Shown: positions 47,023-61,705 of the stretch, piece by piece | Numbering within the stretch: position 1 is the first letter of the stretch | Layout of the letters: the number at the start of each line of letters is the position of its first letter | Assembly (NCBI GenBank): GCA_943787745.1 | Contig: CALSNJ010000002.1 | Coordinates: 942,125 to 1,006,124, forward strand | Direction: 5' to 3' | DNA from: an uncultured Alphaproteobacteria bacterium | GTDB lineage: Bacteria; Pseudomonadota; Alphaproteobacteria; UBA6615 | DNA: 64,000 nt | The notes under the pieces: model-generated | What the model saw: only the letters and a program-made list of their open reading frames with translations | Databases searched by the model: none | What the model was told of the DNA's origin: nothing | Program-made: the position numbers and the translations under genes

Positions 47023-47746
47023 CCAGCGCCCTCACCCACGAGTGAGAACGGCGCCCAATATGCCGGATGGGACGTATTGTCATTCGCTGCAAGCACCATC
47101 ATCGAGCGACGTAGCGCTTCTGAGCGGCCCATGCCCGGAGCTCTGCGCCAGCTCTTCAAACATAACCGTCGTTAGCTGCTTGGCCGCATTCGTCTCAATC
47201 GCCCAATGCGAGACCAGCAATGACTGGCTGCCGGCATAAAAGAACGCTTTAGCAAGACCAGATAATCCCTCCGCACCAGGCTTCCCATCAGCGGCTGCCG
47301 TATTGCACGCACTCAAGATCACCAGGCCCGGGTACAAGCTTGAGTTGCGCGACCTCGCTCGCCGTCAGCACACCGTCATCTGTCGATGAGGCAGCACTAG
47401 GCGGAGAGAGCACAAGACCCGGCTCGGCATAACCACGAAGCTCGCCAGCGACGAGACCATGGGTGGCAAACGCCAATACCTTCGTGCTGGAAAGATCGAG
47501 AGACTTAACCTTCCCCTCCGTCGCCTTCTCGCCAAGATAAACATTGTCGTTACTCGCACCCAGGCTGCGCGCTATCGAGCGAAGCTCGTCTGCTGTATCG
47601 GGAAGAGCTGCAAGACGTGCGAAGCGCATCGCCATCCGCCTCCTGCCCACCACTGAACAGCGGGACAATCGAGATCCCCCGGCGATCAGAGGGGTCTCCC
47701 TTCAGGACCGGATCACCAAAGCCCGTAAACGGATCTGATCCAACCC
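47013..47746 (-). pseudogene. C-terminal half of a CHAT-domain (caspase-like) protease gene, frameshifted
   Basis: The minus strand reads PFTGFGDPVLKGDPSDRRGI, then, after a frame change near 47610, LAALPDTADELRSIARSLGA, KVLAFATHGLVAGELRGYAE with the catalytic His. After another change near 47330 comes PGLVILSACNTAAADGKPGA with the catalytic Cys and AFFYAGSQSLLVSHWAIETN. Later the frame changes again to SHPAYWAPFSLVGEG, the usual CHAT end. It is the missing C-terminal part of the TPR-CHAT gene at 58732-61536, cut off at 47746 by the left end of an IS3-family element. About 55-60 residues between the two parts are absent, judged by usual family spacing. Confidence 0.85.
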
Positions 47747-47800
47747 TGTCCTTCCCCCCTAAAACTGGGCCACTATTTTTAGAGACTGAAGGGGGATGTG

Positions 47801-48088
47801 ATGGCTCGGAAACGTTATTCGGATGAGGACATACTCAAGCTGCTGCGTGAGATTGAGGTGAAGCTGTCGACTGGCAGTGACGTGCCGTCGGCCTGTCGTG
47901 GCGTGGGTATTAGTGATGCCACTTACTACAACTGGCGCAAGCGGTTTGGCGGGATGGGGAAGTCTCAACTGTCGGAACTTCGCGCTCTTGAGAAAGAGAA
48001 TGTGCGGCTGAAGAAGATCGTCGCGGAACTCGAACTCGATAAGCTGATCCTCAAGGAAAGCTTGACCCACCTAAAGCCCAGGGCCTGA
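47801..48088 (+). CDS. IS3-family transposase OrfA (copy A)
   Basis: A 95-residue helix-turn-helix protein: RYSDEDILKLLREIEVKLST, CRGVGISDATYYNWRKRFGG, then a leucine-zipper-like tail (LRALEKENVRLKKIVAELEL). It binds the IS ends; in IS3 elements a -1 frameshift near its end yields the OrfAB transposase. Complete here, but orfB downstream is truncated, so this copy cannot make an active transposase. Confidence 0.92.
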   Translation: MARKRYSDEDILKLLREIEVKLSTGSDVPSACRGVGISDATYYNWRKRFGGMGKSQLSELRALEKENVRLKKIVAELELDKLILKESLTHLKPRA

Positions 48089-48111
48089 CGACAGAGCAGG
48101 TCCGTCAGGCC

Positions 48112-48473
48112 GTGATCCATACGCGTCAGAAGCTCGCGACGTCAGAGAGACGGACATGCCGGGTGATCGGACTGGCGCGCAGTTCTCTGCAATACCGACC
48201 GGCCCGGCGAGATGATGATGCTCTGCGATTGGCCCTGATCCGGCTGGCCAAGCAATACGGGCGCTACGGCTATCGCAAGATAGCCGAACTGCTGCGCATC
48301 GAAGGTTGGAAGGTGAACCACAAGAAGGTTGAGCGGATCTGGCGCGAAGAAGGCCTTCAACTGCCGCAACGGCACAAGAAGCGCCGACGGCTCTACCACA
48401 AGGATGCTTCGATCATACGGCTGCGGCCGACTCATCCGAACCACGTCTGGAGCATCGACTTTGTACACGACAA
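48112..48473 (+). pseudogene. IS3-family transposase OrfB (copy A), truncated
   Basis: Codes for the HTH_21 region and the first catalytic Asp ([11 protein letters not shown]) and then ends because copy B starts. The second Asp and the Glu of the DDE triad are absent. Confidence 0.9.
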
Positions 48474-48476
48474 TGT

Positions 48477-49295
48477 CTAGCCCCCAAGTTCTGGGCCATT
48501 CCTGATTAGAGTTTCTGGAACAGGAGGGCGCATGTTGAGGGCCTGATGTGGGCGGATGTGATTGTACTGTCTGAGCCACTGGTTGATGACGACCTGAGCC
48601 TGCTTTGTTGTGGTGAACCATTCGGCGTTGAGCACCTCGCGGCGCAGAGTTCCGTTAAATCGTTCGTTGTATCCATTCTCCCAGGGTGACCCGGGATAGA
48701 TCCGGATAGGCTTGATCCCGACCCTTGCCAACCAGTCCTGCATCGCTTCCGCGACGAACTCGGGGCCATTGTCGGAACGGATATATTCTGGAGTGCCGTG
48801 GCGCAGGAGTAGCGGGTAGAGCGCCTCAAGGACATCCTCAGCTCCCATCCTGGTGCGAACCGCGACCGCTAGAGCCTGACGGGTGTACTCGTCGAGAACT
48901 GTCAGCATCTTGTAACTCCGACCGCTGTCGAGCTTGTCGTGTACAAAGTCGATGCTCCAGACGTGGTTCGGATGAGTCGGCCGCAGCCGTATGATCGAAG
49001 CATCCTTGTGGTAGAGCCGTCGGCGCTTCTTGTGCCGTTGCGGCAGTTGAAGGCCTTCTTCGCGCCAGATCCGCTCAACCTTCTTGTGGTTCACCTTCCA
49101 ACCGTCGATGCGCAGCAGTTCGGCTATCTTGCGATAGCCGTAGCGCCCGTATTGCTTGGCCAACTGGATCAGGGCCAATCGCAGAGCATCATCATCTCGC
49201 CGGGCCGGTCGGTATTGCAGAGAACTGCGCGCCAGTCCGATCACCCGGCATGTCCGTCTCTCTGACGTCGCGAGCTTCTGACGCGTATGGATCAC
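48477..49295 (-). CDS. IS3-family transposase OrfB (copy B), complete DDE integrase
   Basis: A 272-residue DDE recombinase. HTH_21 region [20 protein letters not shown]; first Asp in [10 protein letters not shown]; second Asp in YIRSDNGPEF; Glu in NGYNERFNGTLRREVL, the D-D-(35)-E triad. The end reads RPHQALNMRPPVPETL. The frame is open upstream into orfA (AEGLTTEQLRQAV), as expected for production as an OrfAB fusion by -1 frameshifting. Apparently functional. Confidence 0.93.
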   Translation of the reverse strand: MIHTRQKLATSERRTCRVIGLARSSLQYRPARRDDDALRLALIQLAKQYGRYGYRKIAELLRIDGWKVNHKKVERIWREEGLQLPQRHKKRRRLYHKDASIIRLRPTHPNHVWSIDFVHDKLDSGRSYKMLTVLDEYTRQALAVAVRTRMGAEDVLEALYPLLLRHGTPEYIRSDNGPEFVAEAMQDWLARVGIKPIRIYPGSPWENGYNERFNGTLRREVLNAEWFTTTKQAQVVINQWLRQYNHIRPHQALNMRPPVPETLIRNGPELGG

Positions 49296-49318
49296 GGCCT
49301 GACGAAGCTGTTCGGTCG

Positions 49319-49606
49319 TCAGGCCCTCGGCTTTAGGTGGCTCAGGCTTTCCTTGAGAATGAGCTTGTCCAGTTCGAGTTCCGCGACAATCTTCTTTAGC
49401 CTGGCATTCTCCTTCTCCAGACTACGCAGCTCCGACAACTGCGACTTCCCCATCCCGCCGAACCGCTTGCGCCAGTTGTAGTAAGTGGCATCACTAATAC
49501 CCACGCCACGACAGGCCGACGGCACGTCACTGCCAGTCGATAGCTTCACCTCAATCTCACGCAGCAGCTTGAGTATGTCCTCATCCGAATAGCGTTTCCG
49601 AGCCAT
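49319..49606 (-). CDS. IS3-family transposase OrfA (copy B)
   Basis: A 95-residue helix-turn-helix protein, nearly identical to copy A; the visible differences are in LRSLEKENARLKK and SLSHLKPRA. It begins MARKRYSDEDIL. A second ATG directly before it could also start the protein. Confidence 0.93.
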   Translation of the reverse strand: MARKRYSDEDILKLLREIEVKLSTGSDVPSACRGVGISDATYYNWRKRFGGMGKSQLSELRSLEKENARLKKIVAELELDKLILKESLSHLKPRA

Positions 49607-49699
49607 CACATCCCCCTTCAGTCTCTAAAAATAGTGGCCCAGTTTTAGGGGGGAAGGACAAACCAACGAGCTATCCATCATGTACAAGGACGCTTGTTG

Positions 49700-49840: not shown

Positions 49841-50256
49841 TACCACACTAACGCATGGTGAGTTGGTCTAGAGCACCATGATCAACACCGGATCGTTTCG
49901 AGTAGGTGACGAAGTTCAGGGACGTAAAAAACCCTGCAAAAGTTTGGCTCAATACGCGCTTCGTTCTACAATCATTTCAATCTCGACCGTCATCTCTACA
50001 ACCGCGAAATAGCCGCTCATCTGCCATGGTAGAATAGCGCCAACTAGGGGCGTGAATCCGTGGTGAACGGCAATTCGGAGACTGGCCCCCATTAGACTGA
50101 CACCACCGCTAGTAATACCAATCCGCACGGACAAAATCCGAATTGGGCTAGCAAGCTACTCATGCAACCAGTTACTCTACAGCGGTGGATCTTGGATATT
50201 CAGTAAGAAAGATAATGAGAAAACGCATCTCCGAGCAAAAGGAAAAACCGTAAACA
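49841..50256. other. Gap upstream of the defence-like cluster
   Basis: About 415 bp with no recognised gene. A minus-strand frame at 49949-50134 has no ribosome-binding site and no resemblance to anything I know. The region presumably holds the promoter of the methyltransferase gene, but no clear -10/-35 pair stands out. Confidence 0.4.
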
Positions 50257-51213
50257 ATGAGTATTGTAGGAAAATTGACCAAGAAAGCTGCCTTTTTTAA
50301 GGGGCATTATGGTCAGATATTTCACGGCGACTCTCTAGAATATATGCGGTCGCTAGATGATGACTCTATTAATCTGATTGTCACGAGCCCCCCCATTTGG
50401 TCTTTTGAGAGAAAAAGAATACGGCAACGTAAAGGCTGAAAATTATAATGATTGGCTGAGGCCATTTGGGGAGCAATTTCATAGAGTTCTAAGAGAAGAC
50501 GGTAGTCTAGTAATTGATCTAGGCGGAAGTTGGGAAAAAAGGACAGCCGACCCGATCACTCTATCAGTTCGAAGTTTTAATCATGCTGTGTCGCGAACTT
50601 GGGTTTCACTTGGCTCAAGATTTCTATTGGTGGAACCCGTCCAAGCTTCCTACGCCTGCTGAATGGGTTACTGTGCGGCGAGTTCGAGTCAAGGATGCTG
50701 TAAATCAAATCTGGTGGCTATCAAAAACGCCATGGCCAAAGGCCTCAAATACTCGTGTTTTGCAGCCTTACAGTAGCAGCATGAAGACTCTTCTGCGCGA
50801 TGGATACACGCCAAATATGCGCCCATCAGGTCATGATATCAGCGACCAATTTCAGAAAAACAATGGCGCCGCTATCCCCCCAAACTTAATCGCTGTTGCC
50901 AACACAGAGAGCAATAGTCCTTACATCAGCTACTGCAAATCACACGACATAAAACCTCACCCTGCTCGGTTTTCCCTCAGAGATTCCGGAATATTTCATA
51001 AGGATGCTTACCGACGAAGGCGATACCGTAATGGACCCATTTGCCGGCAGTTGCTCTTCAGGAGCAGTTAGCGAGAGCTTATGCCGCAAATGGATATGTA
51101 TAGATCTCGAGCTTAGATACTTGGAAGGAGCGATAGGTCGTTTTGGGGAGATGAGAGACAAAAAAACTAAAAATGTCTCTCAGAAAAAATCCTATCGAGT
51201 ACAGAATTCCTAA
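50257..51213 (+). pseudogene. N4/N6-type DNA methyltransferase, three frameshifts
   Basis: Read across three frame changes this is a complete beta-class-like DNA methyltransferase of about 318 residues. It begins KLTKKAAFFKGHYGQIFHGD and MRSLDDDSINLIVTSPP with catalytic motif IV (TSPPFGL after correction). Then QDFYWWNPSKLPTPAEWVTV, INQIWWLSKTPWPK-like VNQIWWLSKTPWPKASN, RPSGHDISDQF, and motif I DPFAGSCSSGAVSESL near the end. Frame changes are at a C7 run (50388-50394), near 50555-50566, and at a T4 run (50970-50973). It would modify cytosine-N4 or adenine-N6. First gene of the cluster; as read, inactive. Confidence 0.85.
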
Positions 51214-51278
51214 AGCCGGAAGCCTATGGAGTGACGACACCTATTCACAAGGACAACTCCGAAGAGGAAAGTCTCGCG

Positions 51279-53386
51279 ATGAATAGTGCTACAAGTCCCG
51301 CTGTCGAGGTGAGCGATCTAGACCTAAGTACCTTAGACCTGGATACCGAGTACCGTTCAAGCAGGGAAGAAGCTGTAGGCCACTTCTTCGCTCCATGCTT
51401 GAGAAGATCTGCAATATACCGACGTGCGGTGGGATATTTTAAGTCATCAGTATTCGGCGTTATTGGCCGCGACGTGGCTGAGTTTGCTTTACGTGGGGGA
51501 AAGATCAGGCTAATTTGTTCGCCTAACCTGTCTCCTGAAGATATCGATAGTATCGCTCTAGGCCATGCGCAGAAAAGTTCGATCATACCTCAGCGCTTAA
51601 AACAGGAGATCGAAGAGTTATTCTCATCTCCAACATCTCGGTTCAATTTGCAGCTTCTAGCGTTGTTAGTCAGCACAGGCGCGATAGAAATCAAGATCGC
51701 AATGCGTTCTGACTCGAAAGGTTTGTATCACGAGAAAATCGGTATTTTTGAGGACGCACTGGAGAACCTCGTAACGTTCAAAGGTTCCTCTAACGAGACT
51801 TGGAATGGCTGGCATCAATCCGGAAATTTCGAGTCAATTGAAGTCTTTTGTGGTTGGCGCGAGAGAGGTGAAGCTATTCGCGTGCAGAAGCATCTCAAGC
51901 ATTTTGAAGGTCTTTGGAGCGAACGCGACGAAGATGTCGAGGTTTTTCCGTTTCCAGTCGATGCGAAAGAAACACTCAAGAGGTTTGCGATGGCAGAGCC
52001 TGAATTGAAGTCATTCCTAGAAGGGTCTCATTCTTCCAGTAAGAGGAAGCCGATGCCCCATCAATTACAAGCGATAGAGTCATGGAAAAAGCAGGGAAAA
52101 AAGGGCGTACTGCAGCACGCTACCGGCAGCGGAAAGACATTCACAGCAATTATAGCTCTGAAGGAACATGTTCAGCTAGGTAAACCCGCATTAATCCTCG
52201 TTCCAAGCCGTCTCCTGTTGGAACAATGGCTGGATGAGGTACGGTCTGAACTTCCGTCATCTGCGATCCTAGCAGCCGGGGGAGGGCATAATCGCTGGCG
52301 AACCAGGGATAAACTAGCAAGTTTTACTAACAATAATGTTGAAAGCGGGCAGCGGGTAATAGTTGCAACTATGCAGACCGCAAGTAGCGCTGAATTTAAA
52401 AGTTCGCTAAATGCGGGTGAACACCTGATGGTAATCGCGGATGAAGTTCATCAAATAGGAAGCCCACAGAACTCGAAGTTTTTTGACGTCGACTGCGGGA
52501 CCTCGTTTGGGATTGAGCGCTACACCAGAGCGATACGGTGACCCAGAGGGAACATTTAATATTTTAGATTATTTTGGGCCTGTGGTGGAACCGATAAATC
52601 ACTCTCGAAGACGCAATTGATGCCGGACGCCTAGTCAAATATGAGCACTTCCCTCATACGGTAAATCTAACCGCCGACGAAGCCGAAGACTGGAGATTCC
52701 GTGTCGAATCAGATCAAGCGAGAGATCGCAAGATCGAGCAAACCCCAACCAGCCTGTTGTTCTTACCGAAAGAGCAAAAATTACTACTCATTCAACGTTC
52801 GCGAATAGCTAAAAAAGCGGTCAACAAAGTAGGGCTCGCTGTCGATGTGATCAAAGAAAACTTCCTTTGCTGGTGAATCTTGGCTCGTTTATTGTGAAGA
52901 TAGTGAACAGATGTACGAGGTTGTTTCCGCGTTAAATGCAGCAAGCTTTGACACCATTGTTTACCACTCAGATATGGAAGGTGACCGCGACGCAACAATG
53001 TCGTGGTTTCGCGAATTTGGAGGAATACTTGTCTCGATTCGCTGTCTCGATGAAGGTGTTGATATTCCAGACGTCTCACACGCCCTGATACTTGCATCCT
53101 CTCAAAACCCCCGGCAGTTCATCCAACGAAGAGGCCGTGTTCTTCGAAAAGCACCGCACAAACACATCGCCAACCATTCATGACGCAATCGTTGTCCCCC
53201 GTTAAAGGCGATGACGAAGACGATCAAATGAGCTTACTAAAGTCAGAACTGGCGAGAGCAATTGAGTTTGCTGATCACGCAATTAATCAAACTGCAAATG
53301 CCCAACTAAGAGAAATTGCAATCGATATGGGTATTGAAATTTCAGAATTAACCGATGTAGGCGTCGAGGATGAAGATGATGACTAG
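51279..53386 (+). pseudogene. PLD-nuclease/SF2 helicase fusion, several frameshifts
   Basis: The first 421 codons are intact. ATG 51279 follows GAGGAA. Residues 1-200 resemble a phospholipase-D-type nuclease domain (YRRAVGYFKSSVFGVIGRDV and GLYHEKIGIFED with HxK). The helicase core has HATGSGKTFTAIIAL (Walker A) and VIADEVHQIGS (DEVH box). At about 52500 the frame changes into LGLSATPERYGDPEGTFNIL (motif III), then near 52600 into TLEDAIDAGRLVKYEHFPHT, near 52875 into the YHSDMEGDRDATMSWFREFG and SIRCLDEGVDIPDVSHAL motifs, with QFIQRRGRVLRKA (motif VI) and a last change at a C5 run near 53198. About 700 residues if repaired. It fits a DNA-targeting defence effector. Confidence 0.85.
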
Positions 53387-53579
53387 AACTGACAATGACC
53401 AAGATCTTGGTTTGTCTACGTTGCTTGAGGTCCGAGACGAACTTGGTTTGCACGTCTCGGATGAACTCGTACGGAAAATACATGCAATTCAAAAAAAATA
53501 TCAGTTCGAGCAAGACCGAACGCTGTCACATCAAGCTACAGAACGCTTGATCGATGAGACGCTCGATCAGTCTGCTTAG
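53370..53579 (+). CDS. DNA modification system-associated small protein
   Basis: A 69-residue (or 66-67 from the next in-frame ATGs) acidic helical protein: LSTLLEVRDELGLHVSDELV, RKIHAIQKKYQFEQDRTLSH, QATERLIDETLDQ. Short proteins of this pattern accompany DndD-like ATPases and helicases in DNA-modification or defence loci; no activity is known to me. It overlaps the helicase end by 17 bp and the ATPase gene follows 16 bp later. It is one of the few intact frames of the cluster. Confidence 0.7.
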   Translation: MKMMTRTDNDQDLGLSTLLEVRDELGLHVSDELVRKIHAIQKKYQFEQDRTLSHQATERLIDETLDQSA

Positions 53580-53594
53580 GGGACGTTCAAAACA

Positions 53595-55586
53595 ATGATG
53601 AAACTAGTGAGTGTGACACTCCCCGGAATTTTATGCCTTACAAGGGCGAACACAGTCTGCAGTTTCCTATGGACGGACGACCGCAATGTTCTGATTGTCA
53701 TCGGCGATAACATGCGCGGGGAAAACCAGTCTTCTAAACAGCGTCCGATGGGCTCTGTATGGCCGCGCAATGGGAAGGCACTCCAGAGAAATACCCGTCA
53801 TCAACATTGTTAACAAAGAGGCTGTCAAGATTGATGACTGGCGTGTCGAAGTGCACCTCAAGTTCGATGCAAACGGACATTCCTACGACCTTAGGCGAGT
53901 TGCAGATCGAAAGACCCCAGACCGCTCGCCAGTCACCTCCGATGACTTTTCGATGAGCGTATATCTTAGGAAAGATGGCGCCCCTCTCCAGGGCGATATG
54001 ATCGACATAGAAATCAACAATATCGCGCCCGAGGCAGTTTCGCGGTTTTTCTTGTTTGATGGCGAGTTATTGCAGGAGTACGAATCGCTGCTAAGCGACG
54101 ACAGCACTCAAGGGAAACAAATAAAGGACTCCATTGAAAAAGTTCTAGGGGGTGCCCACGCTTGTGAATGGTCGTAGTGATGTCAGAACTATTTCAAAGA
54201 AAGCGCAAAAACAGCAGTCTCAAGATTTAACAGCCATATTGAAGGCTTAGAGGCACAAGCCGAACGTAGTGATGCCCTGATTGCAGCGATCGATAGCTTG
54301 GAAAAGGATATTGCCGAACTTGAGGACTAGGATTGAATCCGTAAAGACCGAACGCATTGCGTTGGAAGATGAGATCGAATCTGCGCAAAGCGTTTTTGGA
54401 AGCTCAAGCGAAACTTACGGCAAAGAAAGAGAGAAAAAGACGAGCTGATATCAGAGAGCGAGGCAAAGGAGTCAGAAAAGCTAAAATCTGCTGTCGTTAG
54501 CTTGGAAGGACCTCCTCTTTGTCAAAGTCGATGTACTTAAGACACAATTAGTCGAGAGGCAGCAGACGCTACTAGACCAGATTAAGGGCAACGCTACGCT
54601 CGAGAACGAAGCGCATAATCTCCAAACCTTGCTTGATAAGAAGTGAATGCCCAACATGTGGAATGGAATTATCGCAAGAGCGGAGAAATGAGATCGCTCA
54701 GCGCCTAGTCTCCGCCGAAGAGCGGCTAGCAAGTGTTGCGCAGTTATCAGCCTCTCAAGCAGATATTGCTGGCGAATTATCTCGTTTATCAACTTTCAGA
54801 AATCATGGAGTTCTCGAGCAATTGCAATCCATAACTAAGGATATTGCAAAAAATGAGGTTGCCCTCACCCCAAGTCGAAAATGACATTGAGACACTCAGA
54901 GAGGAGATCGAGGGACACGATACGGCCGAACTAGCGCGAAAACGCTCAAGGATGAGGGAGCTTGGCCGCGAAGAAGGACGCATTGACGTTTCGCTGAACC
55001 AGCAAAAAGACAAACCTCAAAATCAAATCTGATGAACAAGCATTAGCGCAAAAAGCCAATTCAGGGCCTTACGGAAGATAGGACCCAACGTAGCACACAG
55101 AAAGTAGCTATATGTTCTGACCTGGAAACTCTTTTTGATCAGAGTATAGACAAATTGCGTGACAAGCTGAGAGTAGAGGTAGAGCGCATTGCCAATGCCG
55201 CTTTCTCAGAAATGACCACTCAAGAAGCGTATAGCGGCCTTGAGATAAATCACAACTACGGGCTTAATATTCTAGATAGCGCCGGACGAAAAGTAAACAG
55301 TGCGCAGCGCAGGGGCTGAGCAAAATTGTCGCCTTGTCTCTCATCGATGGTTTGAACCGAACAGGACGGCAAGCCGGCCCAGTTCTGATGGATACGCCAT
55401 TTGGTCGCTTAGACCAAAAACACCGAGACAATGTGCTTACATATCTGCCTAGCGTGACTAGTCAGTTCATTCTTCTCGTGCACAGCGGAGAAAATACGCC
55501 GGGAAACTGACTTAGATGTTATCTCGCATAAGATAGGAGGCGTCTACGAGATCATCGAAATTAGTGAAAACAGAGTCCAAGCTTGA
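53595..55586 (+). pseudogene. DndD/Rad50-like SMC-type ATPase, many frameshifts
   Basis: Repairing single-base shifts gives an SMC-like protein of about 650 residues. N-terminal head: NFMPYKGEHSLQFPMDG then VLIVIGDNMRGKTSLLNSVR with Walker A GDNMRGKTS, WALYGRAMGRHSREIPVINI, and FFLFDGELLQEYESLLSDDS. Coiled-coil arms follow, with a CPTCGMELSQERRNE motif near 54650 that resembles the Rad50 zinc hook. C-terminal head: GLEINHNYGLNILDSAGRKV, signature region LSKIVALSLIDGL, Walker B PVLMDTPFGRLD and LLVHSGE. At least six frame changes are visible. DndD-type ATPases couple DNA sensing to restriction; no DndC or cysteine desulfurase is present here. Confidence 0.8.
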
Positions 55587-55598
55587 GAGGGTTACCTT

Positions 55599-55990
55599 AT
55601 GACGATCCAAGAACCGAGCACCGTCGGTCTCACAAAAGCAGCACACGACAAGCTGAAACGTTTCAAAGACGACGGCTGTTTTGGTGAACTCCAAGACGCA
55701 TATCGTTTTGCTATCTCATTAGCGGTCGCCCAGGGAATTGATCCCTCATCAGTCCCCAAGCGAAGGAAGTCGCACCACAATTTTTAACGTCGGCACCTTA
55801 GACCCAGATCAGTCTTTAAAAATCGCTATAAACGCCACTTATTTCAGAAGCCTGCAAAACCGAAGCGGCATACAAAATTGCAGAACGGCTCGCTGAGTGG
55901 GGCGTAAACGAACTAGCAATGGAGGCTACGCGCGGAGAAATAAACTTTGTAAAGCTGCTTCAACAAGCAAACGATAAACAAAATAGTTAG
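55599..55990 (+). pseudogene. Small cluster protein (about 130 residues), two frameshifts
   Basis: Starts MTIQEPSTVGLTKAAHDKLK with GAGAGG upstream, then GELQDAYRFAISLAVAQGID. The frame changes at a T5 run (55781-55785) into NVGTLDPDQSLKIAI and again near 55832 into LISEACKTEAAYKIAERLAE, WGVNELAMEATRGEINFVKL to a stop at 55990. The N-terminal part resembles short ribbon-helix-helix or DndE-sized proteins in size only. Not recognised. The conserved-looking LDPDQSLK and AERLAEWGVNEL suggest a genuine family. Confidence 0.65.
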
Positions 55991-55995
55991 ATATC

Positions 55996-56241
55996 ATGGG
56001 GTTCGTCGTTCGAGCATACTTAATGTTCCTTGGTCCGGACCATGGGTGGGAGGTGACGGTTCATCGAACACTTGAAGACGCGGTCTCAAAATGGACGGCT
56101 CTTCACACTGAGAATCCAAATTCTAGCGCTGTTTTTCATATCGGCTTCGACCGCCCTAAAAGCAGATACTTTGATGAAATTGCACCTGCAAATAACGGCA
56201 ACGTCATCTTAACGGGCATCTGCAAAATTCGGGATGCCTGA
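55996..56241 (+). CDS. Small cluster protein of unknown function
   Basis: An 81-residue intact frame: MGFVVRAYLMFLGPDHGWEV, TVHRTLEDAVSKWTALHTEN, RYFDEIAPANNGNVILTGIC. It starts 6 bp after the previous gene's stop and overlaps the next start by 8 bp, so it belongs to the same transcript. No ribosome-binding site is obvious, suggesting translational coupling. Family not recognised. Confidence 0.6.
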   Translation: MGFVVRAYLMFLGPDHGWEVTVHRTLEDAVSKWTALHTENPNSSAVFHIGFDRPKSRYFDEIAPANNGNVILTGICKIRDA

Positions 56242-58489
56242 CACTTACAAATCATCCAAGTATCCTATCGCATACGTAAATGAGGAACCTGTCTACTTAG
56301 CAATGGCTGGCTGGGGTTACGAGGTCAAACTAGATCTATCTCGCCCCCAAAACGGCAGCAATACGCCCGAACACAAGGCAAACAAGCCCGTTGGCCGAAT
56401 CGCGGACTTTATTTCGGAAAACCCGGAGAGCGAATTAAATCTCTCACGAGAAATGATTTTTGACGAAAACAGCTATTTTGATAACGAGTCAGCACTACCG
56501 ATTGATTTGCGGATATCTTTGGGTCGCTACCTTATCGCGCCTGTAACAAATCAAGGCAAATTTGACATCTGTGAGTTTGCTAGGAAATGCCCACCATGGA
56601 TCGCAAACCGCGACCTTGACAGCATTGAATTATCTGTTCGCGCACAAAACGTCTATCGCATGCAAGGATTTGAGATTGTCCGAGACCTTGGAAAGCTTCA
56701 TCTTCCGAGACCAGCCTATTATCTCTCCAAAACTTTGGTCGAAAATCGATTAGAGATACGCGGGAAGCATTTCTTTCTGCACTATCCGAGGGACCAGTTG
56801 GCCTAGCTGAAGAAGCAAGTAATAGTTCAAACCTGATTGGGTCTCTCCGTTCCGCCATTGAAGACCTAGCTGAAAGGCAAAAAGACATTATATTGCGACG
56901 GATGGGTATCGTTCGACACTCCTCAAACACTAGAGGAGATTGGCGAACTCTATGGCGTCACCCGAGAGCGTATTCGCCAAATTGAAAAGAAGGCCGTTCT
57001 TAAGCTCATCGATAAATACTATTGGGACGACATGCTTGAGGAGAAGTTGGATAAAATGCTCACGTCTCCGCCATTCCCAATCGCGGTGACGGGTATTGAA
57101 GCATTGGATAGTTGGTTTGACGGCGTAAGTGAAAACGTACCTTTGTTTAAATATATCGTAAACGCAAAGCTCGGTAAGAAGTATAGTGTAATTAAGGTAG
57201 AAAACTTACCTTATGTGTGTTGCCTCAGCCAAGATGAATGGGATGCTATTTTAGCTAAATCCAGAGGTTTACTCCGCAACGGCACGCTGAATGGCGAATC
57301 AGAATCTTACGTTAAAACGATTATTACAGGGCAACTGCCGGTACACGCACGTGAGTTTTTCGAGCCTGCTTTGGGATATCTGCTCCAAAAACTGTCGATT
57401 TGTTGAGAATGAATCAGGTAACCCCAATTCTCATTGGATCGGGTCGGGGCGCAGAGGTGCACGTTCAGGCCTTACTTGCAGAATCGGATCAACCCTTACA
57501 CTTCTCCCAGATTCAAAAACGTCTCAATAGTACTGACAATAATGATTTTGATGTGAGGCGTATTCACAATGCAGCAGCCGAGATTGGGCTACTCTTCGGT
57601 AGAGGCACATATGGTTTAGCGAAGCATATTCCTTTTGATGATGAGACCCTTAGAGATATCTCAGGTCAGATAGTAAGCTTCATTGAGCAAAGTGATGAGG
57701 ACCGACAGTGGCACAGTCAAGAATTTGTGGAGCTAATTGAACTAGAAAGCGGACTAGATCCTAAGCCTCTGAATAAATACATCGTAGATATTGCTCTAAA
57801 AAAGCATTCAGAGCTAATAAATTTGGGTCGAATGTCGTGGCGCAGGCCCTCGGAAAAGAATGGCAACGCTGATCGTGTCGAAGTTTACGACCTTATCGTT
57901 GAAGCTATTGAAATCAGCTGGAAAGCCTCTTAAGACTAGAGAAATAGAAGAAGAAATCCGTAAAAAACGAGGCCTATCGAGCACACTTCAAATTTCCGAT
58001 TTCGATCCAATTATCCGAGTCGCACCTGGACTTTGGGGGCTGAATGACCGGGACATTAGCAATCAAGCGCTTTCGGCAGCCCGAATTCATTGACAATATA
58101 TACTCAAAAACTCTCCGCAAGAGGGGATGGCGTACATCTTACTGAGACACATGATTTGGTTGACCCAGGTCAAATATCACCATGGACACTATTCTCACTC
58201 TGCAGGACAGACCCTCGGTTCAGTACCGATATAGTGACAACACCTTTACCTAATTGAATGGGGTGATTCGCGGCGTCAATCTGCTTCTAGAGCCATAACA
58301 GAGGTGCTCAATCGCACTGGACGCGGACTATCATTAGACGAAATACAATATGAATCTGAACTTGCGTTAGGGCGTCCTATTGAGCAAAGGAGAATTTCAA
58401 CTTTGCTGAGTAATATTGGAGCAACTTTCAATTCAACTTATGGAACGTGGTCGATAGCCGAGCAAGCTGCTGAAGATGATGAAGTATGA
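56234..58489 (+). pseudogene. RNA-polymerase-mimic protein: alpha-CTD-like, sigma region 4-like and HARE/winged-helix domains; several frameshifts
   Basis: The first 190 codons are intact (YKSSKYPIAYVNEEPVYLAM to HYPRDQLA), including SIELSVRAQNVYRMQGFEIV, closely like the RNA polymerase alpha-CTD helix-hairpin-helix. The frame changes near 56745 to IEDLAERQKDIILRR and near 56905 to TLEEIGELYGVTRERIRQIE and KKAVLKL, a sigma-70 region 4.2-type helix-turn-helix. After YVCCLSQDEWDAILAKSRGL and a change near 57400 come several winged-helix-like units: AEVHVQALLAESDQPLHFSQ, LKTREIEEEIRKKRG with RVAPGLWGLND (HARE-HTH-like), and GRGLSLDEIQYESELALGRP at the end. About 750 residues when repaired. Likely a DNA-binding regulator or decoy for transcription; function unknown. 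Confidence 0.7.
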
Positions 58490-58544: not shown

Positions 58545-58738
58545 AAAACGTCGTACGGCACCCTGCGCCACGAGGTGCTTAACGCCGAATGGTTTAATCA
58601 CGAAAAAGCAGGCTCAAGGTCGTCATCAACCAGTGGCTCAGGCAATACAATCATACCTACCCACATCAGGCCCTGGACATGCGCCCACCTGTTCCAGAAA
58701 CTCTAATCAGAAATGGCCCAGAACTTGGGGGCTAGACA
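58545..58738 (+). mobile_element. IS3-family element, copy C, diverged right-end remnant
   Basis: The plus strand resembles the end of orfB (GTLRHEVLNAEWF, RPPVPETLIRNGPELGG-type sequence) and finishes with the right end GGGGGCTAGACA at 58738. It differs from copies A and B at many bases, so it is an older copy. Its terminal bases supply the stop codon of the TPR-CHAT fragment on the other strand. Confidence 0.88.
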
Positions 58739-61536
58739 CCCGCAAGGTCACTCTCTAATGGTTCAAAGATCCGCTCATAAAGGTCATGTGCCACGTCATG
58801 TGGAAAGGACGGTAACTTGCCCTGCTCGGGTACAAACGAAGCTCGAAGACGCGACACTGCCTCCTCGAGCGCCGGCGCCTCAATATCCAGCTTCACCATC
58901 CGAAGACCATCCCTACGCACGACCCAGGCATAGCTGTCTGCATAAACCACCAATGCTTCGTCTGAACCTAGAAGGCTCTGTACACCCTTCACCTTTAACG
59001 GTTGAGGGTTCGAGAGCTCTACATATTGCGGGAACTTCTCGCGCAGCTCCCTATCTAGCGCATCAAGACCAACGCCCGTCTTCTCAATAGATGCGCGCAG
59101 GCTCGATTCGCGGTCAGGGCTTCGTTTATCCTTCGCATTAGAAAGCCCAGCGATTAGGGCCTTATCAAGTGAACGCCAAGAAACGCTAAGATCTTGGCGA
59201 CGCCGAACTGCTGTTGCCAGAGCTTGATCACCCGCACCAAGCCGCGCCGACATCTGCGAGAGCGCAGATGATGCAGAGCTTGTCTGTGCCAGCTGGATCA
59301 CCTCAAACGCCTCAGCATGCAGCGAGGCTGACTGTGTTGGTACCTGCTCGCTCAACGAGAAGGCAATTTGCGAATGCTCCCTGAAGTACCCCCTATTACC
59401 CTTGCGCTCGCTCTCTGCTCCAATGGACTTAACGCTCGCGCCCTCAATCCCACGCTTCCGAAGAAGTGCTGTCGATCGGCGAATATAATCCAGAGCTTCC
59501 GCATATCGGCCTTGGTTCTTGTTAAACCGCGCTAGATTGCCAAGGCCTAGGGCAACATCGGGGTGATCCGGGCCAAGCGCCTTCTCTCTAATCTCCAGCG
59601 AACGCCTGTAGAGCGGCTCTGCTTCTGAGTAGCGGCCCAGACCGTTGTATAGAAATGCCAAGTTGTTGAGGCTCAGGGCAACAGTCCGATGTTCAGGTCC
59701 AAATGCCACCTCATGAATTTCCAGCGTGCGCTTGTAGAGAGATTCGGCTTCAGTATAGCGGCCCTGCGTGTTGAAAACTGAGGCTAGGTTGTTAAGGTCC
59801 GTTGCAACATAGGGATGGTCCGGGCCGAGTACCTTCTCATCAATCGCCAGCGAACGCTTGAAGAGCGGCTCGGCGTCCGCGTAACGACCCCGCTTCTCAT
59901 AAAACACCCCCAGATTACCGAGTCCCTCGGCAACATCGGGATGGTCCGGGCCCAGCGCCGCCTCCCTGATCGCAAGGGATCGGTTATAAAGTGGCTCGGC
60001 ATCCGCGTAGCGGCCCTGTTTGTCGTATAGCGCGGCCAGATTGTTGAGGCTCGCAGCTACAGACGGATGGTTCGAACCGAGCGCCTTCTCATCAATCGCC
60101 AGCGAACGCTTGAATAGCGGCTCGGCGTCCGCGTAACGGGCTTGTTGGTCGTACAGCAAGCCCAGATTGTTGAGCACCTCTGCAACATCGGGATGGTCCG
60201 GGCCAAGCGACTTCTCTCGGATAGCAAGCGCGCGCTTGTAGAGCGGCTCGGCTTCCGCGTAACGGCCCAGGTTATCGTACAGCAGGCCCAGATTGTTGAG
60301 GCCCCCGGCCACAGACGGATGGCCCGGGCCCAATGATGCCTCATAGATCGCAAGGGATCGCTTGAGGAGAGGCTCTGCTTCCGCGTAGCGGCCTTGGTCG
60401 TTGTACAGCGACCCGAGATTACTCAGAGCCGGGGCAATATCGGGATGGTCAGGGCCGAGCGCCCCTTCATAGATCGCAAGGGAGCGCTTGAGGAGAGGCT
60501 CGGCATCCGAATAGCGGACTTGGTCGTCGTACAGCGACCCGAGATTATTGAGACCCAGGGCAACATCAGGATGGTCAGGGCCGAAGACCTTCTCCTTAAT
60601 AGCCAGCGAGCGCTTGTAGAGTGGCTCTGCATCCGCGTAGCGGCCCTGGTCTTTGTACAGCGACCCGAGATTACTCAGAGCCGTTGCCACATCAGGATGG
60701 TCAGGGCCGAGCGCCTTCTCATGAATCGCAAGCGAGCGCTTGTAAAGCGGTTCGGCATCCGCGTAGCGGCCCTGATTGTTATACAGCAAGCCGAGATTAT
60801 TGAGGCTCGCAGCCAGAGACGGATGCTCCGGGCCCAATGCCGCTTCATGGATCGCAAGGGAGCGCTTGTAGAGCGGCCCTGCTTCCGCATAGCGGCCTTG
60901 GTTGTTGTATAGCAGGGCAAGATTGTTGAGGCCGGTGGCGACTTCGGGGTGGTCCGGGCCGAGGACCTTCTCCTTAATGGCCAGCGAACGCTTGAAGAGC
61001 GGCTCGGCGTCCGCATAGCGGGCCTGATCACGGTATAGAAAACCAAGAATGGCGAGTCGTAGGGCAACATCCACATGGTCCGGGCCGAGCGCCGTGTCAT
61101 GGATCGCCAGCGAGCGCTTGTAGAGCGGCTCGGCCTCCACGTAACGACCCTGTGTCTTATAAAAGAGGCCTAGGCTATCAAGTACGACTGCGACAAGGGG
61201 ATGATCCGGGCCGAATACCATCTCATTAATCGCCAGCGCGCGCTTAAAAAGCGGCTCGGCTTCCGCATAGCGGGCCTGATCGCGGTATAGAAATCCAAGA
61301 ATGGTAAGACCTGATGCATAGATAGAATGAGTTTCGCCAAACTCCGTTTTAGCTAGCTCGAGGAACGCTTGAGCAAAGGGAACGGCCTCCCCATATTTTC
61401 CTTGTTCGTTTAACGCCTGGTATCGATTAAAGGCTTCGTCTAACTCCGCCGACTGCGCCCAGGCCGGCAGAGTGTGAGTGGCGACTGCCAGCAACACTAC
61501 CGCCATCAGGAATATTTTGGTTATGCTCTTAGCCAT
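58732..61536 (-). pseudogene. Secreted TPR-CHAT protein, truncated before the catalytic residues
   Basis: A 934-residue reading frame. Signal peptide ITKIFLMAVVLLAVATHTLP with cleavage near AWAQ. About sixteen 42-residue kinesin-light-chain-type TPR repeats follow (for example YAEAEPLFKRALAINEMVFG), then the start of a CHAT domain (LYERIFEPLESDLAG). The frame stops at 58732 in the end of IS copy C. The catalytic His and Cys are on the other fragment at 47013-47746. The start ATG 61536 overlaps an upstream remnant (ATGGCTAA). CHAT enzymes are caspase-like proteases; TPR arrays act as sensors or scaffolds. The gene as it stands cannot give an active protease. Confidence 0.88.
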
Positions 61537-61705
61537 CCATAACCTGCTTGAGACGAATAAAGGTTTCCTCGGGACGCCTCCCAAGCATATTTACGAGCAT
61601 AACGTCTCCAGGCTCCAATGAGGCCCTCAAATTAGCTAGCTCGAGAAACGTTTCAACAAAAGGTGTTACTTCCGCATAGTTACCTTCCGCGTCCAAGGCC
61701 CGATA
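61529..61705 (-). pseudogene. TPR-gene remnant upstream of the TPR-CHAT gene
   Basis: The minus strand encodes YRALDAEGNYAEVTPFVETF then LELANLRASLEPGDVMLVNM and RPEETFIRLKQVMDG with a stop overlapping the TPR-CHAT start. The first 25 residues match the N-terminal repeat of that protein (YQALNEQGKYGEAVPFAQAF); the rest is different. Its own start is lost next to an IS6 remnant. Confidence 0.55.

What the first reader, a model, noticed from the sequence alone, without database searches (positions are those of the whole stretch)
50257..58489. Methylase / PLD-helicase / DndD-like ATPase cluster with small partners: a defence-type system
Seven consecutive same-strand genes encode a DNA methyltransferase, a PLD-nuclease fused to an SF2 helicase, a small acidic protein, an SMC/DndD-like ATPase with a CPTCG hook motif, two small unknown proteins and an RNA-polymerase-mimic protein. 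Helicase-methylase-ATPase loci are known as anti-phage systems (described, to my recollection, as 'Hma'). The three extra genes would be new parts or a variant. No DndC/DndA or DISARM DrmB is present, which excludes those systems. The cluster is AT-richer than its surroundings and flanked by IS copies, fitting transfer.
Basis: partly seen in the sequence, partly recalled or inferred. Interest (0 to 1): 0.85.

Follow-up and report, generated by a model that had tools for sequence, protein, structure and literature searches.

The report
Methylase-coupled Pbe defence with sigma-like reader
A damaged copy of a known type of bacterial anti-phage system (a DNA methylase plus the PbeABCD nuclease-helicase/ATPase set) whose sixth gene encodes a protein built from promoter-reading parts of RNA polymerase, a component that recurs in such systems and that I did not find described.

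Summary
The cluster is real, but it has six genes, not seven. In order it encodes a circularly permuted TSPP-type DNA methylase, PbeA (HKD/PLD nuclease + SF2 helicase), the small protein PbeB/SP, PbeC (CxC-hook ABC ATPase), PbeD, and one ~830-aa protein that I call SigL. It is a methylase-coupled PbeABCD (CxC-ATPase/DndE) system, a kind already in print; it is not Hma. Unbroken copies with the same core order occur in other Proteobacteria. All genes here except the small one are frame-broken.

What looks new is SigL: an N-terminal alpha/beta domain, an RNA-polymerase alpha-CTD, sigma region 4 with an invariant -35-reading helix, and a row of winged helices. SigL-type or sigma proteins occur in 21 of 86 Pbe loci, each on the same strand and at most 906 bp from a Pbe gene. 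The window's clade has SigL and mostly lacks MTaX1, which its sister clade carries. My preferred reading: SigL is a DNA-reading subunit that recognises promoter-like DNA for the PbeCD/PbeA machine. Family and gene order are shown; the mechanism is inferred. New variant of a known kind.

The parts
50218..51213 (+). DNA methylase gene, circularly permuted (motif IV TSPP before motif I DPFAG), frame-broken
   Evidence: Pfam N6_N4_Mtase E 8.4e-13 for 50953-51213 and 1.8e-4 for 50583-51068; PADLOC MTase_II 201 bits for 50583-51068; 3 frame changes; homologue P0005 N6_N4_Mtase E 2.4e-31
51231..53386 (+). pbeA: HKD/PLD nuclease domain + SF2 helicase, frame-broken
   Evidence: PADLOC PbeA 388 bits for 51231-52538 and 118 bits for 52911-53180; Pfam ResIII and Helicase_C above cut-off, PLDc_2 E 1.2e-5, just under its cut-off
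53370..53579 (+). pbeB/SP small acidic protein, the only unbroken gene of the six
   Evidence: Pfam Sp-DndD PF20306 E 1.7e-9; 0 frame changes
53618..55599 (+). pbeC: DndD-like CxC (CPTC hook) ABC ATPase, heavily frame-broken
   Evidence: PADLOC PbeC 216 bits for the fragment 53695-54174; 13 frame changes; CPTC in the translation
55599..55990 (+). pbeD: small protein in the place of the DndE cognate, frame-broken
   Evidence: matches PbeD of L002, L008, L009; 2 frame changes
   Evidence: SigL profile pieces; Sigma70_r4 E 2e-11; HARE-HTH E 7.5e-4, below its cut-off; the alpha-CTD match is weak in the broken window copy (E 0.019) and clear in L008 (E 2.3e-11); domain order from the model of L008 SigL
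47747..48473 (+). left part of an IS3-type element
   Evidence: 95.6% identical to the complete copy
48474..49660 (-). complete IS3-type element (orfA, orfB)
   Evidence: HTH_Tnp_1 and rve domains
58555..58738 (+). right-end remnant of the same IS
   Evidence: 89% identity to the complete copy

Best explanation
This is a frame-broken copy of a methylase-coupled PbeABCD (CxC-ATPase/DndE-anchored) anti-invader system, of a mainly proteobacterial subtype whose sixth gene is SigL. Proposed working: the methylase marks host DNA. The hooked ATPase PbeC with PbeD scans DNA. SigL acts as a reading subunit of the complex; its alpha-CTD and sigma-region-4 helix recognise UP/-35-like promoter DNA, its winged-helix row grips the flanking DNA, and it takes the discrimination role proposed for MTaX1 in sister systems. 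On unmarked DNA the complex licenses the PbeA helicase-nuclease to act. Shown: gene identities, order, conservation, the split between methylase-linked and dndC-linked Pbe, and SigL's domains and conserved reading residues. Inferred: that SigL is part of the complex, what it reads, and the licensing of PbeA.
For: Identity: PADLOC/Pfam scores. MTase-PbeA-SP-PbeC-PbeD-SigL in L008 and L009 (unbroken), L002 (sigL split by an IS) and L039 (pbeA in two frames); the same core with the methylase downstream in L010, L011, L013, L014, L015 and L061 (pbeA cut by the contig end). PbeA tree of 86 rows: two halves at SH-aLRT 99; the window lies in a starred 6-row set of SigL-bearing rows. dndC in 21 of 37 loci of one half and 0 of 49 of the other. 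SigL/sigma matches in 21 of 86 loci, all same-strand: 18 overlap or lie within 30 bp of a Pbe gene, 3 at 197-906 bp; apart from the split second half of the L002 gene none elsewhere in 1.48 Mb. MTaX1 (PF20296) and SigL: of 49 methylase-half rows 12 have SigL only, 28 MTaX1 only, 2 both, 7 neither. The most conserved 12-column window of SigL is GVTRERIRQIEA, 3.77 bits against mean 2.47, sd 0.32; T, R, E, R, R, Q invariant in 10 of 10, as are alpha-CTD R211, G242, S245. Models: alpha-CTD Z up to 9.7 and 10.2; sigma-region-4/beta-flap-tip chimeras match over nearly their whole length (94 of 97, Z 10.0; 94 of 96, Z 9.4), plain sigma70 over 76 and 75 residues.
Against: The SigL/MTaX1 exclusion is clade-structured: only 4 independent pairs, sign test p 1. 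L036, inside the SigL clade, has an MTaX1-type protein some way upstream (its contig ends before the SigL site); L031 and L043 have both MTaX1 and a true sigma factor. MTaX1 genes lie mostly just before pbeA, so SigL does not hold the same position. No binding or defence data. Sigma-region-4 conservation could serve transcription control. hhalign did not confirm PbeD as a DndE relative (probability 1.1). In this genome the genes are broken, so the system may be dead here. Wider SigL-like proteins occur on plasmids whose displayed annotation shows no Pbe genes.
Confidence: 0.5

Rival explanations
1. SigL is an ordinary regulator of the operon: an RNAP-derived DNA-binding protein that binds the cluster's promoter and sets its expression, and takes no part in restriction.
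For: Alpha-CTD and sigma region 4 are transcription modules; L031 and L043 carry real sigma factors with regions 2 and 4 right after pbeD.
Against: It follows pbeD in the methylase half but lies just before pbeA in L006, L070, L081 and L087. Complete SigL-type proteins here are 651-1017 aa, and the L008 model has a long winged-helix row, large for a regulator. L008 and L009 SigL lack sigma region 2 by Pfam. Its sigma-R4 is predicted to be capped by its own flap-tip-like helix.
Confidence: 0.27
2. SigL is a modification-state reader (MTaX1 substitute) that works through its HARE-like winged helices; the sigma/alpha parts only give general DNA affinity, with no promoter preference.
For: 12 of 14 SigL-bearing rows in the methylase half lack MTaX1; HARE-HTH E 7.5e-4, below its cut-off, in window 57860-58090; HARE-HTH is said to recognise DNA with modified bases (PMC10853773, passages).
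Against: The most constrained stretch is the sigma reading helix, not the winged helices.
Confidence: 0.3
3. The frame breaks are base-calling or assembly indels and the system is intact and active in this organism.
For: 32 frame changes against 3 in-frame stops; 16 of 32 lie within 8 bases of a run of 4 or more, against 6.8 +/- 2.3 at random; functional motifs readable in the pieces.
Against: The neighbouring sequence has long open frames, so errors would have to be local; the window row has a long end branch (0.55, against 0.26-0.34 for its five nearest rows), as expected of decay; slippage in a true pseudogene also favours runs.
Confidence: 0.45
4. It is an Hma system with extra genes.
For: Same three functional words: helicase, methylase, ATPase.
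Against: PbeA 388 bits against HmaA 29 bits; methylase N6_N4 type, not m5C; ATPase is PbeC/DndD type.
Confidence: 0.02

Closest known systems
PbeABCD with a methylase (PbeAC without dndCD, Xiong et al. 2019, PMC6459918)
   Same: PbeA, PbeB, PbeC, PbeD; methylase in place of DndCD. The paper reports base-modifying proteins within 10 kb of 155 of 320 solitary PbeAC (section 10 read whole, other passages).
   Different: No sigma-like sixth gene in the passages and section I read; the system tested there is linked to phosphorothioation.
CxC ABC-ATPase/DndE-anchored systems with cytosine methylases and MTaX1 (PMC10853773; section 16 read whole, other passages)
   Same: HKD+SF2, SP, CxC ATPase and DndE cognate with circularly permuted N4-type methylases.
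   Different: Window and most of its clade have SigL and no MTaX1; SigL is not in the section read (figures and supplements not seen). The one 'sigma' passage in that paper concerns a DndH variant.
MzaA of MZA systems (NCBIfam NF041931)
   Same: A sigma-70-related protein in an anti-phage system; 59.5 bits to L008 SigL over the region-4 stretch.
   Different: Match covers 63 residues of 878 and is far below the curated cut-off of 800.
PglW of BREX (PMC12839542, passages)
   Same: An alpha-CTD-like domain followed by three winged helices, as that paper describes.
   Different: PglW has a kinase and, in the passage seen, no sigma region 4; homology was not tested here.
Hma (PMC8565338, passages)
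   Same: Helicase, methylase, ATPase.
   Different: Helicase and methylase belong to other families; the ATPase is PbeC type.

Membership tests
PbeABCD / CxC-DndE system | PbeA: HKD nuclease fused to SF2 helicase | tested here: met
   PDLC02707 388 bits (window fragment), 719 bits (P0001); HKD residues H172, K174, D180, G190, S191, N193 invariant among 4 rows
PbeABCD / CxC-DndE system | small disordered protein (PbeB/SP) | tested here: met
   Sp-DndD E 1.7e-9; disorder itself not tested
PbeABCD / CxC-DndE system | PbeC: DndD-like ATPase with CxC hook | tested here: met
   PDLC02725 216 bits (fragment), 1004 bits (P0004); CPTC in window translation
PbeABCD / CxC-DndE system | PbeD, DndE cognate with two ribbon-helix-helix domains | tested here: inconclusive
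   Right size and place, conserved in the loci; no PADLOC match for the window piece or P0003; hhalign to a small mixed DndE/dpa4 alignment, probability 1.1
PbeABCD / CxC-DndE system | antiviral activity | not testable with these tools
   No experiment possible; window copy is frame-broken
Methylase-linked subtype | DNA methylase instead of DndC | tested here: met
   Methylase present; no dndC found in the genome
Methylase-linked subtype | MTaX1 gene | tested here: not met
   No MTaX1 profile match among the window's ORFs; described as 'often', not always, present
Hma | HmaA helicase, m5C methylase HmaB, HmaC ATPase | tested here: not met
   HmaA only 29 bits against PbeA 388; methylase N6_N4 type
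Dnd phosphorothioation | DndC sulfurtransferase | tested here: not met
   0 of 1 genome; none among the window's ORFs
sigma-70 factor | region 2 (core binding, -10 melting) plus region 4 | tested here: not met
   L008 and L009 SigL: Sigma70_r4 and RNA_pol_A_CTD, no region 2

The most novel reading that the evidence does not exclude
SigL-type Pbe systems find invader DNA by its promoters. A sigma/alpha-derived subunit freed from RNA polymerase, with its flap pocket filled by its own helix, reads UP and -35 elements and steers a methylation-licensed helicase-nuclease to transcription start regions of incoming phage or plasmid DNA.
Probability: 0.2. Interest if true: 0.85.

Novelty: new variant of a known kind. 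Interest (0 to 1): 0.5.

Why it matters
Methylase-coupled Pbe systems are known only from genome surveys in what I read, and how they choose targets is open. A recurrent subunit that keeps the DNA-reading parts of sigma and alpha but not the core-binding part gives a concrete, testable idea: promoter sequences may be used as targets or as reference points in restriction. It also separates two subtypes (SigL and MTaX1) that could be compared directly.

Tried and rejected
Hma: rejected on scores. DISARM, Dpd, BREX: only weak helicase hits. Housekeeping helicase/methylase: rejected; the PbeA and PbeC profiles dominate.

PbeD as DndE: tried by profile comparison, not confirmed; the comparison alignment mixed DndE and dpa4 and was poor.

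SigL outside Pbe: the full SigL profile rings in 383 of 385 genomes; the matches listed outside the window's own genome (a capped list) cover the sigma stretch, so that search says little. The SigL C-terminal profile A3 matched 1 of 398 Pseudomonadota genomes, the window's own, and 1 of 24 in the order, again its own. In 72,556 plasmids the L008 C-terminal and N-terminal pieces match one record, the Pbe-bearing A. atlanticus plasmid. The L006 C-terminal piece matches 2 plasmids, its own and a Ruegeria one, both with dnd and Pbe genes. Against an exclusive link: the L081 piece matches 16 plasmids. Of the 4 of these that I opened, two annotated ones (Microbacterium H53, Mycolicibacterium H59) show no Pbe genes in the annotation displayed; two have no annotation, of which the Arthrobacter one has a PbeA match right beside it (H4). 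The other 12 were not opened.

Independent-pairs test of SigL against MTaX1: too few pairs. Genus-level PbeA search: the other 5 genomes give only weak helicase-region matches (best 49 bits, against 386 in the window's genome); the family also rings in 14 of 14 control genomes, so only strong scores count. Viral contigs: one scan with close-relative patterns found no relative of P0001. Phage records: 8 with a match, 2 of them over at least 80% of P0001. Near-identical DNA in plasmids: none. Viral fold library: one match at E <= 0.001, without a name; many weaker rows are named sigma factors. PDB Foldseek: two matches at E <= 0.001, winged-helix arrays of UFL1/DDRGK1 and SelB (that these are winged-helix arrays is recalled); the sigma/alpha matches quoted come from the second look by VIA-align, where Z near 8-10 is modest.

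Clean IS insertion into the TPR-CHAT gene: a 3-base CCC lies at both outer IS ends (read), but the CHAT model's first ~94 positions are covered by neither listed piece, so a simple insertion is not shown.

Literature limits: Krishnan et al. 2020 (gkaa726) is not held, so SigL may be described there or in figures and supplements I could not see. Searches behind 'not found described': (listings), with passages or sections read.
Full report
1. What is there. The window lies in a 3.27-Mb genome. Between 50218 and 58489, on the + strand, six genes can be traced. The methylase, pbeA, pbeC, pbeD and sigL are broken by frame changes; pbeB/SP is not. A frame-aware alignment to the proteins of L009 needs 32 frame changes and meets 3 in-frame stops; with those of L008 it needs 35 and meets 2. 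Half of the 32 lie beside base runs of four or more, against 6.8 +/- 2.3 at random, and runs of five or more are denser in the cluster than in shuffles of it. The preceding 46 kb has many long open frames. Whether this is decay by slippage or a local base-calling problem cannot be settled from the sequence; I put it near even.

2. Identity. PADLOC profiles give PbeA 388 bits (fragment), PbeC 216 bits (fragment) and MTase_II 201 bits (fragment); the homologues in the Aurantiacibacter atlanticus plasmid score 719 (PbeA) and 1004 (PbeC). Two methylase pieces match N6_N4_Mtase, at E 8.4e-13 and 1.8e-4. The small acidic protein is Sp-DndD, that is PbeB/SP. The methylase has TSPP before the DPFAG motif in the window translation, a circularly permuted order; that TSPP[FY] suggests N4-cytosine is recalled, not tested. 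So the order is MTase, PbeA, PbeB/SP, PbeC, PbeD, SigL.

3. Relatives. With 6 plasmid loci, 86 loci were examined with iterated profiles. The six genes are unbroken and in the window's order in L008 (Devosia) and L009 (Hyphomicrobium); in L002 sigL is split by an IS and in L039 pbeA is in two frames; in L010, L011, L013, L014 and L015 the methylase lies downstream of sigL. A PbeA tree of 86 rows (85 loci, L061 left out because its PbeA is cut, plus the window fragment) splits in two at SH-aLRT 99. dndC is found in 21 of 37 loci of one half and in 0 of 49 of the other, counting L061 in the latter. The window sits in the second, methylase-linked half, in a starred set of six with Aurantiacibacter, Salipiger, Bradyrhizobium, Devosia and Hyphomicrobium. 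That Pbe without dnd pairs with methylases fits Xiong et al. 2019 (PMC6459918, section 10) and PMC10853773 (section 16): this kind of system is already known.

4. The sixth gene. SigL (878 aa in L008, 832 in L009) has RNA_pol_A_CTD and Sigma70_r4 but no Sigma70_r2 by Pfam. An AlphaFold model of L008 SigL from 10 aligned sequences (pLDDT 81, pTM 0.45) shows an alpha/beta domain (1-105), a helical part, the alpha-CTD (187-259), a disordered linker, sigma region 4 (305-383), then a row of winged-helix units, about six or seven by my reading of the secondary structure. The best-conserved twelve columns of the whole protein are the sigma recognition helix; the residues that in sigma-70 and alpha contact the -35 and UP elements (assignment recalled) are kept: R351, E352, R355, Q356, R211, G242, S245 in 10 of 10 and N214 in 9 of 10. 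Structural comparison ranks sigma-region-4/beta-flap-tip chimeras first (8d5v, Z 10.0, 94 of 97 residues, model 305-423), while plain E. coli sigma-70 aligns over 76 residues only (303-378); a separate model of the fragment gives the same picture (7kug 94 of 96; sigma-70 75 residues), though it rests on the same sequences. I read this as a helix of SigL sitting where the RNA-polymerase flap tip docks; without coordinates I could not check contacts, and Z near 10 is modest.

5. How regular it is. Matches to the SigL profiles at E < 1e-3 occur in 21 of 86 loci; all are on the same strand as, and near, Pbe genes: 18 overlap or lie within 30 bp, three lie at 197, 623 and 906 bp; one further match is the second half of the L002 gene, which an IS splits. 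None lies elsewhere in 1.48 Mb. Two of the 21 (L031, L043) are true sigma factors with regions 2 and 4; L012 is cut by the contig end before region 4. Seven of the 21 lie in the half where dndC occurs (dndC itself in 3 of these 7 loci); region 4 was found in all six scanned and in L006. The least number of changes of this trait on the tree is 11, so it was gained or lost repeatedly. In the methylase half SigL and MTaX1 hardly overlap: of 49 rows 12 have SigL only, 28 MTaX1 only, 2 both and 7 neither. This follows a few deep branches, and the pair test has no power. MTaX1 genes lie mostly just before pbeA, some after pbeD, so the swap, if it is one, is of role and not of position. L036, in the SigL clade, has an MTaX1-type 607-aa protein upstream and a contig that ends before the SigL site.

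6. Against an exclusive link. The L081 winged-helix piece matches 16 plasmids. Two annotated ones of the four that I opened show no Pbe genes in the displayed annotation, but helicase, nuclease or DUF499/DUF1156 genes. So the wider family may serve several systems.

7. Mechanism. Best reading: methylation marks self; PbeC/PbeD scan; SigL reads promoter-like DNA and provides discrimination; PbeA acts on unmarked DNA. Only the parts list, order and conserved residues are shown. The rivals are an operon regulator and a modification reader without promoter preference.

8. Setting. IS3-type pieces bracket the cluster (47747-48473, 48474-49660, 58555-58738). On the minus strand a TPR gene ends at the right side (58739-61584) and CHAT-domain pieces lie at the left (47080-47668), the CHAT model's first ~94 positions covered by neither. 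This suggests that the island lies in a former TPR-CHAT gene, with loss of sequence. The other 5 genomes of the genus show only weak helicase matches to PbeA, consistent with gain by transfer.

9. Verdict. A known kind of system, with an apparently undescribed, recurrent sigma-like component: new variant of a known kind, interest 0.5.

Noticed in passing
47080-47668 (-) and 58739-61584 (-): CHAT-domain pieces on the left and a long TPR protein (15 TPR_12 stretches) on the right of the island look like one TPR-CHAT gene split by the IS-bracketed insert.
   Followed up: partly
L002:16588-20108: In the Aurantiacibacter plasmid the sigL gene is itself interrupted by an IS3 element.
   Followed up: partly
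L031:14659-16359 and L043:14647-15885: True sigma factors with regions 2 and 4 stand directly after pbeD in a Sporolactobacillus and a Diaminobutyricibacter Pbe locus.
   Followed up: partly
L136 (Microbacterium plasmid) and L138 (Mycolicibacterium plasmid): Relatives of the actinobacterial SigL winged-helix part lie beside UvrD/DUF4011 genes or near DUF499/DUF1156 genes, possibly other defence systems.
   Followed up: partly
phage records MT835493.1 and MT835506.1: Two faecal phage records encode PbeA-like proteins over 87-91% of the query at 32-34% identity.
   Followed up: no
50220-58480: Runs of five or more equal bases are denser than in the rest of the window and than in shuffles; this goes with the frame changes.
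   Followed up: partly
L008:14633-14935 (SigL residues 2-101): The N-terminal alpha/beta domain aligns to an adenylyl cyclase (4wp9, Z 8.2, 96 residues); near the noise level, but its GVLHIGFSRPPS stretch is the second most conserved of SigL.
   Followed up: no
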